From the NCBI GenBank assembly GCA_902596605.1, contig CACJUU010000003.1, forward strand, positions 62,001 to 126,000: a DNA stretch of 64,000 bases, given 5' to 3'. Every line of letters begins with the position of its first letter. The stretch's first letter is position 1. Source of the stretch: an uncultured Alphaproteobacteria bacterium. Lineage in GTDB: Bacteria; Pseudomonadota; Alphaproteobacteria; Rhodobacterales; Rhodobacteraceae. Positions 7,919 through 53,391 of the stretch are shown piece by piece. The notes under the pieces were generated by a model. That model searched no databases. It had not been told where the DNA came from and saw only the letters and a list, made by a program, of their open reading frames with translations. A program made the translations under genes and the position numbers.

Positions 7919-9135
7919 TCTTTTTTATTCCTTCGCGCCAGTTCGCGCAGGCGAAGGGCTTTAAGCTTTATGAATCCTTCTGCATCACCTTGATTATAGT
8001 AACCTTCGTCGTCCTCAAATGTTACTAATTGTTTGGAGTATAAACTCTTTGATGATGATCTGCTTACAACGTGAGCGGTTCCCTTGTACAATTTCATTTT
8101 TACAGTTCCTTCAACACTATCCTGGCTTTTATCAATAAGGGTCTGTAAGAGATCTCTTTCGGGGGTAAACCAAAGACCATTATAAATTAACTCAGCATAT
8201 CTTGGCATTATGTCGTCTTTCAGATGTGCAGATCCACTATCTAGCGTAAGGCTTTCAATTGCTCTGTGAGCTTGTAAGAGTATAGTTCCTCCTGGTGTTT
8301 CATAAACACCTCGCGATTTCATTCCCACAAATCTATTCTCTACTAAATCGAGCCTTCCTATTCCATGCAGTCTACCAAGATCATTAAGTCTCTTTAGTAA
8401 GTTTGCAGGTGAGTATTCTTTGTCATCAATTGCTATTGGATCTCCATTCTTAAAGCTGATTCTTATGTAATCGGGTTTATCAGGTGCTTTTTCTGGATCA
8501 TTTGTCCTCTGATATACATACTCTGGAGCTTCATCTTCTGGATTTTCCAAAATTAAACCTTCTGAAGATGTATGTAATAAATTAGCATCCACTGAAAAAG
8601 GAGGTTCCCCTACTTTATTTGCTGCAACAGGAATTTGGTGTTTTTCGGCAAAATCTATTAATTTTGTCCTACTACTTAGGTCCCATTGTCTCCAGGGTGC
8701 AATAATTTTTATATCTGGATTAAGAGAGTATGCTCCTAATTCAAATCGTACCTGATCATTTCCTTTTCCTGTAGCACCGTGACTTATTGAGTCTGCACCG
8801 ACAATATTAGCAATCTCTATTAACCTCTTTGAGATCAGCGGCCTCGCTATTGATGTTCCCAGCAAGTATTGACCTTCGTAAACTGTATTGCATCTAAACA
8901 TCGGAAAAACATAGTCCCTAACGAACTCCTCAGTGAGATCGTCAATAAAAATATGCTCTGGTTTAATTCCGAGTAAGAGAGCTTTTTCTCGCGCAGCATC
9001 TAGTTCCTCACCTTGACCAAGATCAGCGGTAAAACAAACCACCTCATAGTCTAACTCAGTTTGTAGCCACTTCAATATAACTGAAGTGTCAAGCCCGCCA
9101 GAGAAAGCAAGAACTACTCTTTTCTTTTGTGCCAT
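7915..9135 (-). CDS. argG: Argininosuccinate synthase
   Basis: ATP-dependent condensation of citrulline and aspartate to argininosuccinate, the penultimate step of arginine synthesis. The 406-residue protein starts [20 protein letters not shown], which contains the SGGLDTS P-loop of N-type ATP pyrophosphatases. [15 protein letters not shown] forms part of the citrulline/aspartate site. Length and motifs are normal. argH, the next enzyme, is encoded 17 kb away rather than adjacent, and carB at the window's left edge supplies carbamoyl phosphate to the same pathway. It diverges from the iron alcohol dehydrogenase gene over 120 bases. Confidence 0.97.
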
Positions 9136-9255
9136 GTATGGAGTCCTTTCCTTACAACAATTTCTGTGATTGACAGTGTTTGTCTATCTATCCAAACTTA
9201 GAACACAGTTTTTAAATTGTGTAAAATATTATAAACAAGATTAGAAAGGTTTACC

Positions 9256-47534: not shown

Positions 47535-48233
47535 TTATATAAAAATTTTGCCGTTATTATCACTATCTGTAATTTCTATTTTTTCTAGACACAAGTAATT
47601 TCCTTCAACTATCCTTAACGCTGTTACAAATAGAACCATAGAGTCCAAAACATCATCGATCTTTATTGAGGAATTATTTTCTAACTTCAAGTTAACTGAT
47701 AAAGGATCTAAACCTACTCTTTTTAAGAGATCTAATCTTTCAAAAATTCCTGATACTGACTTTTTTTTTGCCTTTAGAGCTTCTTTTTTTAGCATTTTGA
47801 AACTGCACTCAGGATGCCCCTCATAAACTTTATTAGGTAACTTAGATATTTGTTGTACCTCGGTAATTTTACCTTTTAAGTGCCACGATTGCTTTGATAA
47901 ACCCTTTCCCGTTATTTTCTTGCTAAGCTCATTTGCTTCTTGATAAGTATTGCATTTAAGAACTCTCTTTAACGGCGGAATAAATATTGAGGATTGGAAT
48001 GCTTTACCTAGATATTTCTTTGCCAAAACGTCACATGTTCTCAAGTAATTTTTTTTATTTAGTTCAATTGGCATATCTATCACTACTACACTGTCAGGGT
48101 AGTCTGACATAAGTTTATTGAGGTCTTCAGAAAATTTTATGCTAGACAAACGCTTTTCTCTTGAGTTTCCTATTGATGCAATCCAGCCAGAAGAGGTGCC
48201 GTCTACTCCAATTAGGTCCATAGTGTTAGTCAT
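47535..48233 (-). CDS. DUF429 family protein
   Basis: A 232-residue protein with an RNase H-like fold signature: MDLIGVDGTSSGWIA at the start, VVVIDMPIELNKK with an acidic residue at the end of a strand, and YEGHPECSFKML in the middle. These match DUF429, a predicted nuclease family of uncertain function. It overlaps the end of pckA by eight bases and so is translated with it, but no functional link to PEP carboxykinase is known. Confidence 0.78.
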   Translation of the reverse strand: MTNTMDLIGVDGTSSGWIASIGNSREKRLSSIKFSEDLNKLMSDYPDSVVVIDMPIELNKKNYLRTCDVLAKKYLGKAFQSSIFIPPLKRVLKCNTYQEANELSKKITGKGLSKQSWHLKGKITEVQQISKLPNKVYEGHPECSFKMLKKEALKAKKKSVSGIFERLDLLKRVGLDPLSVNLKLENNSSIKIDDVLDSMVLFVTALRIVEGNYLCLEKIEITDSDNNGKIFI

Positions 48234-49764
48234 TTTTTAAGAGATTGTAAACGCTATCGACCTTTTCATTAATTGAAGAAAACTGTTGAAAGTTATTCAC
48301 AAACATTGATTTTAATTCAGTCGCTGACCTATCATAATCACGCGCATTTGCCCAATTCTCCCTAGGGTTTAGTAAGTTTTTAGGAACACCATCTATTTCA
48401 ATTGGAACACAAAAATTAAAAAACTGGTCTTTCCGTGTTTGTACGTTTTTTTTGTTGCTTAAAATAAACTTTAGAATCCTTCGAGTTAAGTCTATTGATA
48501 TTCTTTTGCCTTCTCCATAGCTGCCACCGCTCCATCCCGTATTAAGCAACCAACAAGCCGGTTCGGTGCTATGGATCTTGCTCCATAAAAGTTTTCCGTA
48601 TACTTCCGGTTTTTGAGGCATGAATGGTGCTCCAAAACAAGTTGAGAAAGTGGGAACAGGTTCCTTGATTCCCTCTTCAGTTCCGGCAACCTTTGATGTG
48701 AAGCCAGAGAGGAAATAGAAAACTGCTTCGGCTGCGGTAAGTTTAGCAACAGGTGGTAAGACGCCGAAAGCATCGCATGTTAACAAAATTATATTTTTAG
48801 GAGCTCCACCATATCCAGATTTTGATGAATTCTTAATGTAAGAAATCGGGTAGGCACATCTCATGTTCTCTGTAACAGAAGAGTCTGAAAATTTAAGTGA
48901 TCGATCGCTTGTATCGTAATTCATGTTCTCAATTACTGTAGAAAATTTTTCAGTAGTTGAAAAAATTTGTGGCTCATCCTCATAGCTTAAATTAATTGTT
49001 TTTGCGTAACAACCGCCCTCAATATTGAATACTCCGGTGTCACTCCAACCATGTTCATCATCACCAATTAAAATTCTGTCTGGGTCTGTCGAAAGGGTTG
49101 TCTTCCCTGTTCCCGACAAACCAAAGAACAACGCTACGTCCTTTTCGTTTGAAATAGAGTGGTTTGCAGAGCAATGCATTGGCATTATAGATCTTTCAGG
49201 AAGTAAAAAGTTTAAAAGTGTAAAAACGGACTTTTTGTTTTCGCCCGCGTACCCAGTGCCACAAATCAAAACGAGCTTTTTTTCAAAACTTATAGCAATA
49301 GTTGTCTCTGATACACAACCATGCCGATCAGGATTTGAAAAAAAGGAAGGACAATTTAGAATTTTGAAGTCGGGCTTAAAATTATTCAGCGACTCCTCCG
49401 ATGGAACTTTCAGCAAATGTCTTATAAATAAACTATGCCAAGCTAATTCTGTTGTAACTTCAATATTGAAAAACTCATTGGTATTTATTGAAGCTTGTAA
49501 ATCTTGTGAATAACACCTTTTTCCTTTTTGATGTTCTAACATATCCTCATGAAGTATACTAAAATGGTCCTTTGTCATTGGCCGGTTGTTTTCCCACCAT
49601 ATCTTCTCATCCGTGTCTTTTTCTCTCACCACATGTTTGTCTTTAGGAGATCTCCCGGTCTTTTCACCGGTAAACACGATTAAAGAACCGCCTTTCCCTA
49701 GCTTGCCTTCGCTATTCTTGATGGCCTCTTCGACTAGGTCAATTTCATTTAGATTTTTGTACAC
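48226..49764 (-). CDS. pckA: Phosphoenolpyruvate carboxykinase (ATP)
   Basis: Makes phosphoenolpyruvate from oxaloacetate, the entry to gluconeogenesis. The 512 residues include TGEKTGRSPKDKHVV near the start, the P-loop FFGLSGTGKTTLSTDP (GLSGTGKT at 215-222), and the metal site in LIGDDEHGWSDTGVFNIEGG. The start is a GTG at 49764 with no clear ribosome site. It gives a protein about 25 residues shorter at the N-terminus than usual (about 535), beginning near the family's YNL segment. The frame upstream is open only back to a stop near 49805 and offers no start codon. A short reading frame ending one base before the GTG could deliver ribosomes to it (see findings). Confidence 0.93.
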   Translation of the reverse strand: MYKNLNEIDLVEEAIKNSEGKLGKGGSLIVFTGEKTGRSPKDKHVVREKDTDEKIWWENNRPMTKDHFSILHEDMLEHQKGKRCYSQDLQASINTNEFFNIEVTTELAWHSLFIRHLLKVPSEESLNNFKPDFKILNCPSFFSNPDRHGCVSETTIAISFEKKLVLICGTGYAGENKKSVFTLLNFLLPERSIMPMHCSANHSISNEKDVALFFGLSGTGKTTLSTDPDRILIGDDEHGWSDTGVFNIEGGCYAKTINLSYEDEPQIFSTTEKFSTVIENMNYDTSDRSLKFSDSSVTENMRCAYPISYIKNSSKSGYGGAPKNIILLTCDAFGVLPPVAKLTAAEAVFYFLSGFTSKVAGTEEGIKEPVPTFSTCFGAPFMPQKPEVYGKLLWSKIHSTEPACWLLNTGWSGGSYGEGKRISIDLTRRILKFILSNKKNVQTRKDQFFNFCVPIEIDGVPKNLLNPRENWANARDYDRSATELKSMFVNNFQQFSSINEKVDSVYNLLKND

Positions 49765-49972
49765 TTTACTTATTTGACAATACTCCCGTTCTGTCCGATA
49801 GCATCACAAAGATGCGCTCTCGTTTGACTGTTACCTTTTGTTACATTATTTTGTAAATCACAAATAGAGTAAAAAAACAATTAAAAACACATTCGCGTTC
49901 GGTACCGTTGTCTAATTTTTTCTAAACTTGTTATTTAATGTAAAATAAAAATGAAATGGAAGGTGACTACTG
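49765..49972. promoter_or_regulatory. Divergent pckA-rapZ upstream region
   Basis: The largest gap in the window (208 bases). It must hold promoters for pckA (left) and rapZ (right). On the right-hand side TTGTCT (49908-49913) and TATTTA (49932-49937) are a plausible but weak -35/-10 pair for rapZ. GGAAGG at 49958-49963 is its ribosome site. On the pckA side there is a five-pair inverted repeat GCATC-N5-GATGC (49801-49815), which overlaps the ATG of a 12-codon reading frame (49804 to 49766, minus strand). No operator of a known regulator was recognised. Confidence 0.35.
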
Positions 49973-50827
49973 GTGAACAAGCATGAATTAATTTTAGTTA
50001 TAGGGCAGTCTGGTGCTGGAAGGACCACTGTTATCCATATACTAGACGATCAAGGTTTTGATACGCTCGACAATGTGCCTATTCATTTGATATCTCAGGT
50101 AGCTTCCACAAACTTAGAAGATAAGCCATTAGCCATAGGTTTGGACTTAAGGTCGAAGAGTTTTTCTCTTCAGAAATTAATGGGAGAAATTAATAACTGG
50201 AGGACATTCTCAAAATCTCGGGTAGTTATCTTATTCTTAGAGTGTAGTTTAGAGATTTTAATAAAAAGATTTAGTTTATCTAGGAGACCTCACCCCGTAG
50301 CTGGTGAAAATAATCTTGAACTATCAATTAAGAAAGAGCTCAAATTAATTGCTCCTCTAAGGGAAAAAGCGGACTTTGTTTTAGACACCAGTAATACTAG
50401 CCCCAATGAGCTAAGATTGAAATTGGGGTCTCTTTTTTCGTCAGCAAATAACAGAAATATACAAATTATGGTACAGTCTTTTTCCTATAGTATAGGGTAT
50501 CCAAAAGAAATAGACATGATTTTCGACTGTAGGTTTTTAAAGAATCCAAATTGGGTAGAGGGTCTAAAAGATCTGAACGGAACTGATGAGGCAGTTAAAG
50601 ACTATCTAAATAAAGATAAGAGCTGGACAACCTTTAAAAAAAATTTATGTCAGATGATTTCTGTAGTTATACCCGCCTTCGAAAGGGAGGGTAAATCCTA
50701 CCTTTCGATAGGTCTTGGTTGTACTGGAGGCCAACACAGATCTGTGTTTGTTGCTGAGGAGTTGTATAATTATCTTTTAAACAAAGGTTATGACGTGAAG
50801 ATTTTACACACAATTTTGCAAAAGTGA
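49973..50827 (+). CDS. rapZ: RNase adapter / nucleotide-binding protein RapZ
   Basis: P-loop protein of the YvcJ/RapZ family. In E. coli it binds small RNAs and glucosamine-6-phosphate and guides RNase E; elsewhere its role is unclear. The 284 residues have an N-terminal NTPase domain with GQSGAGRT (11-18), where Arg17 replaces the usual Walker A Lys. GFDTLDNVPIHLI follows, and DTSNTSPNELRLKL is near the middle. The C-terminal RNA-binding half carries VQSFSYSIGYPKEID, CRFLKNPNW and GLGCTGGQHRSVFVAEELYN. The start is GTG at 49973 after GGAAGG. The hprK, EIIA and HPr genes that normally flank it in alphaproteobacteria are missing. Confidence 0.93.
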   Translation: MNKHELILVIGQSGAGRTTVIHILDDQGFDTLDNVPIHLISQVASTNLEDKPLAIGLDLRSKSFSLQKLMGEINNWRTFSKSRVVILFLECSLEILIKRFSLSRRPHPVAGENNLELSIKKELKLIAPLREKADFVLDTSNTSPNELRLKLGSLFSSANNRNIQIMVQSFSYSIGYPKEIDMIFDCRFLKNPNWVEGLKDLNGTDEAVKDYLNKDKSWTTFKKNLCQMISVVIPAFEREGKSYLSIGLGCTGGQHRSVFVAEELYNYLLNKGYDVKILHTILQK

Positions 50828-50867
50828 TTTTGCTTATAATCACTGATCAAACATTATGCCTCTCTAA

Positions 50868-51794
50868 TTAGATTTTCTTTTCTATTTCTGGTACAGCTTT
50901 AAATAGATCATCAACTAGTCCAAAGTCAGCAACCTGAAATATTGGAGCCTCCTCATCTTTGTTTATAGCTACAATTACTTTACTGTCTTTCATTCCTGCC
51001 AAGTGCTGTATCGCACCAGATATCCCAACTGCAACATATAAATCGGGTGCAACTACCTTACCAGTTTGACCAACCTGCCAATCATTAGGAGCAAAACCTG
51101 AGTCCACCGCTGCTCTGCTAGCACCCACGGCTGCTCCTAGTTTGTCGGCAAGACCCTCAATTATTTCAAAATTTTCCTTGCTTCCAACACCTCTTCCTCC
51201 AGACACAACCACTTTTGCTGACGTTAGTTCAGGCCTATCACTTGTTTGCATTTTATTTTCAACGAAAGTAGTAAGCGGATTATTACCTTTACAGTCTATT
51301 TTTTTTATATTCGCACTACCTGTCGAAGGTACAGCGCTATAATTGCTGGTCCTAACTGATATCAATTTTAATTTATCAATTGACTGCACAGTCTGTATTG
51401 CATTACCCGCATAAACTGGACGTTCAAAAGTATCCTCCGAAATAACTTTAGATACATCTGATATTACCATTACATCCAACATTCCACCAATCCTTGGAAG
51501 AACGTTTTTTCCGAAGGAACTCGAGGGTGCAAATACATGTGAATATGATTTTAATGTATCAATCATGGTCTCGCTATAGCTCTCAGCAAGGCTCTGAGCA
51601 AAAAGCTCATTTTCTAATACCAGTACAGTTTCAACGTTCTCCATTTTTGCTATATTTGTTGATGCATCTGAGCACTGGTTAGAGGCACACAAAACATCAA
51701 CCTTACCCAAAGTAGATGCTGCTGATACAGTTTTGCTAGTCTGATCCTCGGCGAGCTCGCCATTATTAATTTCTGCCAACACTAATATTTTCAT
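50868..51794 (-). CDS. etfA: Electron transfer flavoprotein subunit alpha
   Basis: FAD-carrying subunit of ETF, which collects electrons from acyl-CoA dehydrogenases. The 308 residues begin MKILVLAEINNGELAEDQTS. The C-terminal FAD domain shows VVSGGRGVGSKENFEIIEGL, GASRAAVDSGFAPNDWQVGQ and LYVAVGISGAIQHLAGM. I use the ATG at 51794 because a clear GGAGG lies upstream of it and it gives the family start; a longer frame from 51830 would run back into etfB. It is four bases after etfB. Confidence 0.96.
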   Translation of the reverse strand: MKILVLAEINNGELAEDQTSKTVSAASTLGKVDVLCASNQCSDASTNIAKMENVETVLVLENELFAQSLAESYSETMIDTLKSYSHVFAPSSSFGKNVLPRIGGMLDVMVISDVSKVISEDTFERPVYAGNAIQTVQSIDKLKLISVRTSNYSAVPSTGSANIKKIDCKGNNPLTTFVENKMQTSDRPELTSAKVVVSGGRGVGSKENFEIIEGLADKLGAAVGASRAAVDSGFAPNDWQVGQTGKVVAPDLYVAVGISGAIQHLAGMKDSKVIVAINKDEEAPIFQVADFGLVDDLFKAVPEIEKKI

Positions 51795-51798
51795 AAAT

Positions 51799-52557
51799 CT
51801 ATCCTCCAACGTTTTCTTGAATTTTTTCAACTAGCTGATCTATGTTTTCTAAGATCAATCCTGCTTCTCTACTATCTGGCTCTTTTGTTTTAATAACTTT
51901 GAGCCTTTGCGTTATCTCAACTCCTAGATCGGCTGGATTGACTTCTTCCAGCGGTTTTCTTTTTGCCTTCATAATATTTGGCAGACTAGCGTATCTGGGC
52001 TCATTTAATCTAAGATCAACTGATACGACCGCTGGCATTTTCGCATCTATTGTCTGAAGTCCGCCATCGACTTCTCTTGTTACCCTTATAATATCTTCCT
52101 TAACATCAATTTCTGAAGCAAATGTAGCTTGAGACCATTTAAGTTTTGCTGATAGCATTTGGGCGGTAGCATTAAAATCGTTATCTATGGCCTGTTTGCC
52201 ACATAAAATTAGAGACGGACCTTCTTTAAGAGCAATTGAAGCAAGAATATTTGCTACTGTGAGTGGTTCAATATCGTTGTGAACATCATCTGTTGCAACA
52301 ACCAAAATGGCTCGATCAGCACCCATAGCTAATGCGGTTCTTAATGTCTCTTGGTTTTGCTGGACCCCTATTGAAACCGCTATTATTTCCTCTGCATTTC
52401 CCTTTTCTTTTATTCTAATTGCTTCCTCTAGTGCTATCTCATCGAATGGGTTCATTGACATTTTAACATTCGCTAAGTCAATACCACTTCCGTCTGCTTT
52501 AACTCTAGCTTTAACGTTGTAGTCTAGGACTCTTTTTACAGGAACTAAAATTTTCAT
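51799..52557 (-). CDS. etfB: Electron transfer flavoprotein subunit beta
   Basis: AMP-binding subunit of ETF, 252 residues. [20 protein letters not shown] opens the chain. [20 protein letters not shown] and [10 protein letters not shown] line the nucleotide site, and [20 protein letters not shown] is the recognition-loop segment that docks to dehydrogenases. It lies upstream of etfA. Together they feed the ETF-ubiquinone oxidoreductase encoded at 19-20.7 kb. The 68-base gap before the cobalamin adenosyltransferase gene could allow a separate promoter. Confidence 0.96.
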
Positions 52558-52625: not shown

Positions 52626-53186
52626 TTATTTGTTTTTTCCAGGCGACCAAAGCACCTCAGTTGAATTTTCCTGGTTTTCAACTCTTGAGGCAACAAAAAG
52701 CCAATCTGATAGCCTGTTTAAGTAGATAAGCGTATTGTCATTAATATCTTCTTTCGATCTTAAGCTTACTATACTTCTTTCCGCACGACGACAAATAGTT
52801 CTGGCCAGATGTAAGAAGGTGGCAGACTTACATCCTCCTGGCAAAATAAAGCTATTTAGAGGATTAAGTATATTGTTCATTTCATCTATCTCGACTTCTA
52901 GTGTCTCTATTTGGCTAGAAGATACTCTTAACCTACCATTATTATTTTCGGAAATCGGCACACATAAATCGGCTCCGAGATCAAACAGATCATTTTGGAT
53001 ATTTTTTAGCTTTCTTTTTAAATCTGGCGTCGCATACAATGTAACCACCCCAATACTCGCGTTAAGTTCATCAACGTTCCCGTAAGCATTTACTCTGAGA
53101 CTATCTTTAAGTACCCTCTGCCCGTCACCAAGTGCTGTGTCTCCAGTATCCCCTGTCTTTGTATATATTTTATTTAATTTTATCAA
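52626..53186 (-). CDS. Cob(I)yrinic acid a,c-diamide adenosyltransferase (PduO type)
   Basis: Makes adenosylcobalamin, the cofactor of methylmalonyl- and ethylmalonyl-CoA mutases. About 186 residues: IKLNKIYTKTGDTGDTALGD at the N-terminus is the ATP-binding motif of PduO-type enzymes, VNAYGNVDELNASIGVV follows, and FILPGGCKSATFLHLARTIC with RRAER forms the active-site helices. I prefer the TTG at 53186, which has AAAGG eight bases upstream and gives the usual start just before IKLNKIYT. A GTG at 53195 would add three residues and overlap the HIG1 gene. Confidence 0.92.
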   Translation of the reverse strand: MIKLNKIYTKTGDTGDTALGDGQRVLKDSLRVNAYGNVDELNASIGVVTLYATPDLKRKLKNIQNDLFDLGADLCVPISENNNGRLRVSSSQIETLEVEIDEMNNILNPLNSFILPGGCKSATFLHLARTICRRAERSIVSLRSKEDINDNTLIYLNRLSDWLFVASRVENQENSTEVLWSPGKNK

Positions 53187-53187
53187 A

Positions 53188-53391
53188 CTACCCACCTTTG
53201 GAAAAATAAACGAAAAGAATAATTAATAATATTGCAACAGCTTGGAGAAGTATTCTCAAACGCATGATTTTATTTGCGTATTTTTTATTAAATTCTCCAC
53301 CGAAAGCGAACCCACCTAGGCCAACCATGAGAACTATGACTACTAGGAGACAAACTACTATTACAAGTATATGGGCATTTTCTAATATCAC
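53188..53391 (-). CDS. HIG1-type twin-transmembrane protein
   Basis: A 67-residue protein with two membrane segments flanking GFAFGGEFNKKYANKIMRLR, the conserved turn of the HIG1 domain. Eukaryotic and some bacterial relatives associate with cytochrome oxidase, which would suit a respiratory role, but the function here is unknown. The true start is a GTG at 53391: AGGAGG (53399-53404) lies seven bases upstream. A frame from the ATG at 53430 would place that ribosome site inside the gene. It precedes the adenosyltransferase and ETF genes, a cluster seen in other alphaproteobacteria. Confidence 0.85.
   Translation of the reverse strand: MILENAHILVIVVCLLVVIVLMVGLGGFAFGGEFNKKYANKIMRLRILLQAVAILLIILFVYFSKGG

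What the first reader, a model, noticed from the sequence alone, without database searches (positions are those of the whole stretch)
49765..50827. RapZ left alone beside pckA, with its usual regulatory partners gone
In many alphaproteobacteria pckA diverges from chvI-chvG-hprK-rapZ-EIIA-HPr. Here pckA diverges directly from rapZ, followed by a convergent etfA, so five genes of that regulatory unit are missing from the locus. RapZ is otherwise full length and its C-terminal RNA-binding motif GLGCTGGQHRS is intact, though its Walker A has Arg17 in place of Lys. Retention of RapZ alone suggests it has a core role independent of the nitrogen-type phosphotransferase system.
Basis: partly seen in the sequence, partly recalled or inferred. 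Interest (0 to 1): 0.5.

Follow-up and report, generated by a model that had tools for sequence, protein, structure and literature searches.

The report
RapZ kept after PTS-Ntr loss
A group of small-genome ocean bacteria has lost nearly all of a carbon/nitrogen signalling relay, with genes deleted on both sides of rapZ, yet kept rapZ itself and one stranded relay protein elsewhere, which suggests that RapZ, probably a sensor of cell-wall sugars, does not need that relay.

Summary
pckA (48226-49764, -) diverges from rapZ (49973-50827, +), which converges on etfA; the same order stands in 18 of 18 rapZ loci of the genus. Other genera of the family have pckA<>chvI-chvG-hprK-rapZ-EIIAman-HPr...><etfA, so genes were deleted on both sides of rapZ in place. 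Genome-wide, HprK is in 0 of 22 genus genomes; HPr, EIIA-man and EI in one each, always G011, in what reads as a dihydroxyacetone-kinase PTS; no ChvI orthologue was found. RapZ is in 18 of 22.

Corrections: RapZ is not the only survivor, as EIIA-Ntr (PtsN) is in 17 of 22 with its His intact; Arg17 is a family trait; GCTGGQHRS is the phosphosugar pocket, and the enterobacterial RNA-binding tail is absent.

RapZ is under purifying selection with no more stem divergence than its neighbours. Best reading: a PTS-independent amino-sugar sensor kept during genome streamlining; its client is unknown. RapZ homologues outside this PTS are already known in other phyla; the orphan EIIA-Ntr is the more unusual part.

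The parts
49973..50827 (+). rapZ, 284 aa, two-domain RapZ
50003..50026 (+). Walker A GQSGAGRT; Arg17 at 50021-50023, as in other family members
50549..50551 (+). Asn193, equal to E. coli pocket His190; Asn in 18 of 18 genus members
50717..50743 (+). GCTGGQHRS, main part of the C-terminal ligand pocket
   Evidence: pocket identity from PMC9841335
48226..49764 (-). pckA, divergent neighbour
49765..49972 (.). pckA-rapZ intergenic, 208 bp, where chvI-chvG-hprK stand beside rapZ in other genera
50828..50867 (.). rapZ-etfA junction, where EIIAman, HPr and further genes stand in other genera
50868..51830 (-). etfA, convergent neighbour
51799..52557 (-). etfB, part of the conserved flank
52626..53195 (-). 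cobalamin adenosyltransferase gene (pduO-like), part of the conserved flank

Best explanation
An ancestor of this ocean Rhodobacteraceae genus lost the ChvG-ChvI system and the HprK / EI-Ntr / HPr / EIIA-man relay during genome streamlining. At this locus chvI-chvG-hprK on one side of rapZ and EIIAman-HPr plus further genes on the other were deleted in place, and rapZ was kept because it works without them. Shown: the changed locus, the genus-wide absence, purifying selection on RapZ, an intact fold and most pocket residues. Inferred: RapZ reads amino-sugar supply (UDP-GlcNAc or a nucleotide at the N-terminal P-loop domain, a phosphosugar such as GlcN6P in the C-terminal pocket) and passes this to a client that sets envelope-precursor output, by RNase E recruitment or by a protein partner. 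It is unlikely to use the enterobacterial RNA-binding tail, which it lacks. EIIA-Ntr was kept too, probably as a mostly or always unphosphorylated regulator.
For: Order pckA<>rapZ><etfA in 18 of 18 genus loci, against chvI-chvG-hprK-rapZ-EIIAman-HPr complete in 13 of 15 other-genus loci of the family. HprK 0 of 22, EI, HPr and EIIA-man 1 of 22 each, RapZ 18 of 22; chance of missing a universal gene in all 22 about 1e-14 if completeness is taken at face value and the genomes as independent. dN/dS median 0.106. Stem divergence relative to the family 1.38 against 1.11-1.55 for five neighbours. 46 of 51 near-invariant columns kept. A second family repeats it: G060 reads chvI-chvG-rapZ-(sahH) with hprK, EIIA and HPr gone. 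The mirror case exists: G035 keeps hprK-EIIA-HPr and has no RapZ match. GlmS and RNase E are in the window's genome. RapZ, YvcJ and Rv1421 bind GlcN6P or UDP-GlcNAc (passages or abstract).
Against: No functional data on an alphaproteobacterial RapZ were found in the searches made. The residue equal to E. coli His190 is Asn in 18 of 18 genus members, and H190A and K170A are inactive in E. coli (PMC9841335); K170 is Ser here. RapZ has the highest dN/dS of the seven genes compared (others 0.033-0.090). The N-terminal domain shows a shift of rate, so the role may have changed. GlmS is clear in only 8 of the 16 genus genomes searched (5 whole, 3 partial), and absent from two about 90% complete (G001, G008). 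Bacillus YvcJ does not regulate GlmS (PMC7525490). G000 is 84% complete. Confidence was lowered from 0.6 to 0.55 when the GlmS counts were rechecked.
Confidence: 0.55

Rival explanations
1. RapZ changed its job after the relay was lost: the N-terminal domain was remodelled on the genus stem and then fixed for a new ligand or partner.
For: N-terminal domain: stem 1.61, crown 0.31; C-terminal: stem 1.12, crown 0.54; resampling P 0.03 and 0.006. Asn for His190 and Thr or Ser for E. coli R277 are confined to the genus in the alignments made.
Against: The domain split was made after seeing the data, stem intervals overlap, and whole-protein rates are like the neighbours'. 46 of 51 near-invariant columns are kept.
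Confidence: 0.2
2. RapZ and the unphosphorylated EIIA-Ntr act together as the surviving amino-sugar (GlmS) control.
For: Both are kept and both act on GlmS in Salmonella (PMC5024086, passages). G060, of another family, also has both with no EI, HPr, EIIA-man or HprK match.
Against: In Salmonella the phosphorylated form binds and inhibits GlmS more strongly; the unphosphorylated form prefers TrkA, KdpD and others. G055 and G056 keep RapZ without PtsN. No interaction data in this lineage.
Confidence: 0.12
3. RapZ is a relic not yet deleted.
For: Genome reduction is under way; 4 of 22 genomes show no RapZ.
Against: dN/dS 0.106; full length in 18 of 18; the four misses are in genomes 65-80% complete.
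Confidence: 0.05
4. The missing genes are only rearranged or lie in assembly gaps.
For: Draft genomes, mean completeness 75%.
Against: The locus is read through on one contig in 18 genomes, and HprK is absent from 22 of 22.
Confidence: 0.03

Closest known systems
E. coli RapZ (PDB 5o5o, 5o5s, 8b0i, 8b0j)
   Same: Same two domains; 35% identity over 275 aligned residues; C-terminal domain Z 20.5, rmsd 1.6 over 123 residues; Cys247, Thr248, Gly249, His252 and Arg253 kept.
   Different: Arg for the Walker A Lys, Asn for His190, Ser for K170, Gln for K251, no RNA-binding tail; not in an rpoN operon.
Bacillus subtilis YvcJ and Mycobacterium tuberculosis Rv1421
   Same: RapZ homologues that bind UDP-GlcNAc; YvcJ also lacks the RNA-binding consensus; Rv1421 N-terminal domain Z 20.1, rmsd 2.1 over 153 residues.
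   Different: yvcJ lies beside glmR; here the neighbour is pckA. The Walker A Lys is K22 in YvcJ.
Alphaproteobacterial pckA<>chvI-chvG-hprK-(rapZ)-EIIA-HPr locus
   Same: Same flanks and same place for rapZ as in other genera of the family.
   Different: All five partner genes are gone. The published Brucella order (bvrR-bvrS-hprK-ptsM-ptsO-sahH) has no rapZ (PMC2937029, passages).
PTS-Ntr (EI-Ntr, NPr, EIIA-Ntr)
   Same: EIIA-Ntr kept, phosphorylation-site His in 15 of 15 full-length sequences.
   Different: No EI and no HPr found outside G011, so no known donor for EIIA-Ntr.

Membership tests
RapZ (RNase adapter / YvcJ family) | RapZ-like N-terminal and RapZ C-terminal domains over cut-off | tested here: met
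   Pfam 108.8 and 138.7 bits; NCBIfam NF003828 284.7 against 244
RapZ (RNase adapter / YvcJ family) | P-loop (Walker A) in the N-terminal domain | tested here: met
   GQSGAGRT, Arg for Lys as in 13 of 13 readable other-genus family sequences
RapZ (RNase adapter / YvcJ family) | C-terminal pocket H190, T248, G249, H252, R253 (E. coli numbering) | tested here: inconclusive
   Four of five kept; His190 is Asn, while 29 of 29 other alphaproteobacterial sequences have His, Tyr or Phe
Enterobacterial GlmZ-binding RapZ | C-terminal RNA-binding consensus RxRxKNxQxRHRTxxKRK and basic residues K170, K251 | tested here: not met
   2 of 12 specified letters identical; K170 Ser, K251 Gln
Enterobacterial GlmZ-binding RapZ | GlmY/GlmZ small RNAs | not tested
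   Rfam found no match in the window; the rest of the genome was not searched for them
Enterobacterial GlmZ-binding RapZ | Binding of RNase E, GlmZ and GlcN6P | not testable with these tools
   RNase E and GlmS genes are in G000
PTS-Ntr | EI-Ntr and HPr/NPr | tested here: not met
   PF05524 and PF00381 match only G011 of 22 genus genomes
PTS-Ntr | EIIA-Ntr with its phosphorylation-site His | tested here: met
   17 of 22 genomes (2 partial); His in 15 of 15 full-length sequences
ChvG-ChvI system | ChvI orthologue | tested here: not met
   Best-scoring genus hit 38% identity; 66-75% in 8 of the 15 other genomes searched

The most novel reading that the evidence does not exclude
The genus runs a relay-free remnant of PTS-Ntr: RapZ and an EIIA-Ntr with no phosphodonor, a state also seen in another alphaproteobacterial family (G060), together set amino-sugar supply. 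Metabolite-bound RapZ and the unphosphorylated form of EIIA-Ntr would then be the selected core, and the phosphorelay an optional input. Probability lowered from 0.18 to 0.15 on rechecking, because in Salmonella the phosphorylated form is the stronger GlmS inhibitor.
Probability: 0.15. Interest if true: 0.6.

Novelty: new variant of a known kind. Interest (0 to 1): 0.4.

Why it matters
Evolution has run the deletion test: genes on both sides of rapZ are gone and rapZ stayed, in two families. This makes the role of alphaproteobacterial RapZ testable without the relay, and offers a natural EIIA-Ntr with no known phosphodonor for asking which of its reported targets need phosphorylation.

Tried and rejected
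Rejected: rearrangement or gap; relic; Arg17 as decay; GCTGGQHRS as the RNA-binding motif. PF13756 is a weak test for ChvG: 0 of 22 in the genus, but only 3 of 15 in the other family genera, so ChvI was used. G011 looked like an exception: its EIIA and HPr domains sit in one 237-aa protein beside ORFs read by eye as DhaK, DhaL and EI, with a second EI-type hit nearby, so its EIIA-Ntr could have a donor. The pckA-rapZ intergenic has a conserved AT-rich block but no site was assigned. Rfam found nothing in the window. In some searches some ORFs were badly chosen: L056:8945-9592 gave no family, because chvI there is 8359-9168. In the family survey only 8 candidates were scored in nearly all genomes, so some of the 14 misses may be false; the match list was cut after the best hits. 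The VIA list mostly covers residues 1-162.

Paper searches, all in an open-licence library: RapZ with alphaproteobacteria, none; RapZ, 78 papers, 40 listed; none. None of the listings seen reports this loss. PMC12661815 (Roseobacter ecogenomics, passages) describes deep streamlined clusters under 2.9 Mb and 40% G+C and has no hit for phosphotransferase. PMC13104625 and PMC2405797 (passages) describe other partial PTS losses; neither was read in full.

Full report
WHERE IT IS. The window is contig 3, bases 62001-126000, of a 1.97 Mb assembly rated 84% complete; window G+C is 36.6%. By RapZ its nearest named relatives are nine records at 76-92% identity: eight titled uncultured Alphaproteobacteria, isolates AG-..., and one titled Rhodobacteraceae. 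That AG- isolates are single-cell genomes from the tropical ocean is recalled. The tool gives 21 other species in the same genus (G001-G021) and many larger genomes in the same family.

OBSERVATION. rapZ is 49973-50827 on +, with both RapZ domains. pckA is divergent and etfA convergent. An AlphaFold2 model from 11 sequences (mean pLDDT 82.6, pTM 0.56) matches the E. coli RapZ C-terminal domain (Z 20.5, rmsd 1.6 over 123 residues) and the Rv1421 N-terminal domain (Z 20.1, rmsd 2.1 over 153). The arrangement of the two domains in the model is not reliable.

ANCESTRAL LOCUS. In L068 the order is pckA<>chvI-chvG-hprK-rapZ-EIIAman-HPr-acyltransferase, hbd, DUF6473, then etfA-etfB-pduO. The six genes chvI to HPr are complete at the locus in 13 of 15 other-genus loci; L081 is cut at a contig end, and L086 has hprK, EIIA and HPr but no rapZ. 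In the genus, 18 of 18 loci carry pckA, rapZ, etfA, etfB and pduO and none of the eight genes between. The flanks are the same, so genes on both sides of rapZ were removed in place; two deletion events or more are the simplest account (inference).

GENOME-WIDE. Among 22 genus genomes: RapZ 18, HprK 0, HPr 1, EIIA-man 1, EI 1. The one is G011 each time, where EIIA and HPr domains sit in one protein beside ORFs that read as DhaK, DhaL and EI, with a second EI-type hit nearby. ChvI: best-scoring genus hit 38% identity, against 66-75% in 8 of the 15 other genomes of that search. Among the 15 other family genera first searched: HprK, HPr, EIIA-man and EI 15 of 15 each, RapZ 14 of 15. A wider family draw has HprK in 380 of 394 genomes, and in 342 of the 346 that are at least 90% complete; the 14 without include G000, G008 and twelve of other genera. 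RNase E is over cut-off in 12 of 16 genus genomes searched, G000 included. GlmS is whole in 5 of 16 (G000 included) and partial in 3; the other 8 show only paralogue hits or, in G011, none, and two of them (G001, G008) are about 90% complete. That weakens any claim that GlmS is the target throughout the genus.

A SECOND SURVIVOR. EIIA-Ntr (PtsN, PF00359) is in 17 of 22 genus genomes, two of them partial. Its phosphorylation-site His is kept in 15 of 15 full-length sequences, and its rates (stem 1.04, crown 0.36) show no release. Between lptB and ptsN, hpf stands in 11 of 11 other-genus loci and 0 of 15 genus loci; rpoN, detected there in 3 of 11, is in 0 of 15. In Brucella, EIIA-Ntr was phosphorylated in vitro only when EI-Ntr and NPr were both present; in cell extracts the phosphorylated form was seen only in the hprK mutant, not in wild type, ptsP or ptsO (PMC2937029, passages). 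The genus protein is therefore expected to be unphosphorylated outside G011 (inference). Among 27 PtsN carriers outside the genus, only G060 also lacks EI and HPr matches.

INDEPENDENCE SEEN ELSEWHERE. Of 24 genomes from 24 other families of the class, 15 have RapZ; 5 of these lack an HprK match (G042, G055, G056, G057, G060), and 3 (G055, G056, G060) lack HprK, HPr, EIIA-man and EI. Five genomes (G038, G039, G040, G045, G054) have HprK and no RapZ match. In G060 one contig reads chvI-chvG-rapZ followed by an ORF whose sequence reads as sahH (by eye): hprK is gone from one side and EIIA-HPr from the other. As Brucella has ptsM-ptsO-sahH, the same kind of excision seems to have happened twice (inference). 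G060 is 86% complete.

SELECTION. Within the genus rapZ dN/dS is 0.106 (16 genomes, 103 pairs): the highest of seven genes (others 0.033-0.090) but strongly purifying. Divergence on the genus stem relative to the family is 1.38 (95% 1.12-1.66), inside the range of five neighbours (1.11-1.55); maximum-likelihood trees agree (1.61 against 1.22-2.16). Loss of the relay did not visibly free RapZ from constraint. A domain difference does appear: N-terminal crown 0.31 and stem 1.61, C-terminal crown 0.54 and stem 1.12, with resampling P 0.006 and 0.03; it was not planned beforehand.

RESIDUES. The Walker A Arg is in 18 of 18 genus sequences, 13 of 13 readable other-genus family sequences and 4 of 15 from other families. 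The pocket Cys247, Thr248, Gly249, His252 and Arg253 is kept; His190 is Asn in 18 of 18 and His, Tyr or Phe in 29 of 29 others. In E. coli H190A and K170A are inactive (PMC9841335, passages). The E. coli authors state that the putative GlcN6P site is widely conserved while the RNA-binding domain is restricted to Enterobacteriaceae (PMC7073468, passages). A GlmZ-type RNA adaptor is therefore doubtful here; metabolite sensing is the safer guess.

MECHANISM. Proposed: RapZ reads UDP-GlcNAc or a nucleotide at the N-terminal domain (as reported for YvcJ, and Rv1421, abstract) and a phosphosugar in the C-terminal pocket, and changes the output of a client in envelope-precursor supply. The E. coli authors suggested control of a two-component system as the primordial role; with ChvI not found here, that partner at least is not needed in this genus. 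Against a simple GlmS role: Bacillus YvcJ does not regulate GlmS. The client is unknown.

VERDICT. RapZ homologues outside this PTS are not new. What stands out is the in-place loss on both sides of rapZ in an ocean lineage, its likely repeat in another family, and the orphan EIIA-Ntr.

Noticed in passing
L055 (G011 contig 2, 5000-14033): ORFs reading as DhaK, EI, a fused EIIA-HPr protein and DhaL beside a sugar ABC transporter, the only EI and HPr matches in the genus; locus G+C 35.3%, like the genus.
   Followed up: partly
L091 (G000 contig 14) 7193-8496 and 14 other genus loci: lptB is followed by ptsN; hpf, and rpoN where it stood, are gone from between them.
   Followed up: yes
window 48226-49764: pckA (GTG start) aligns from about residue 25 of the NCBIfam model; matches in most other genus loci begin at about the same point, and the DNA upstream was not examined there.
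   Followed up: no
window about 49848-49892: AT-rich block in the pckA-rapZ intergenic that is conserved across the genus, possibly shared promoter or operator sequence.
   Followed up: partly
L086 (G035): Mirror case: hprK-EIIA-HPr kept beside hbd and etfA, no rapZ, chvI or chvG at the locus and no RapZ match in the genome.
   Followed up: partly
G030 contig 3, 1857443-1857906: The rapZ match is split in two pieces and the aligned C-terminus is odd: possible frameshift or sequencing error.
   Followed up: no
G099, G181, G411: Family genomes 97-99% complete without an HprK match outside this genus; their rapZ loci were not looked at.
   Followed up: no
G000-G015: A full-length or partial GlmS is seen in only 8 of 16 genus genomes, two of the others being about 90% complete.
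   Followed up: no
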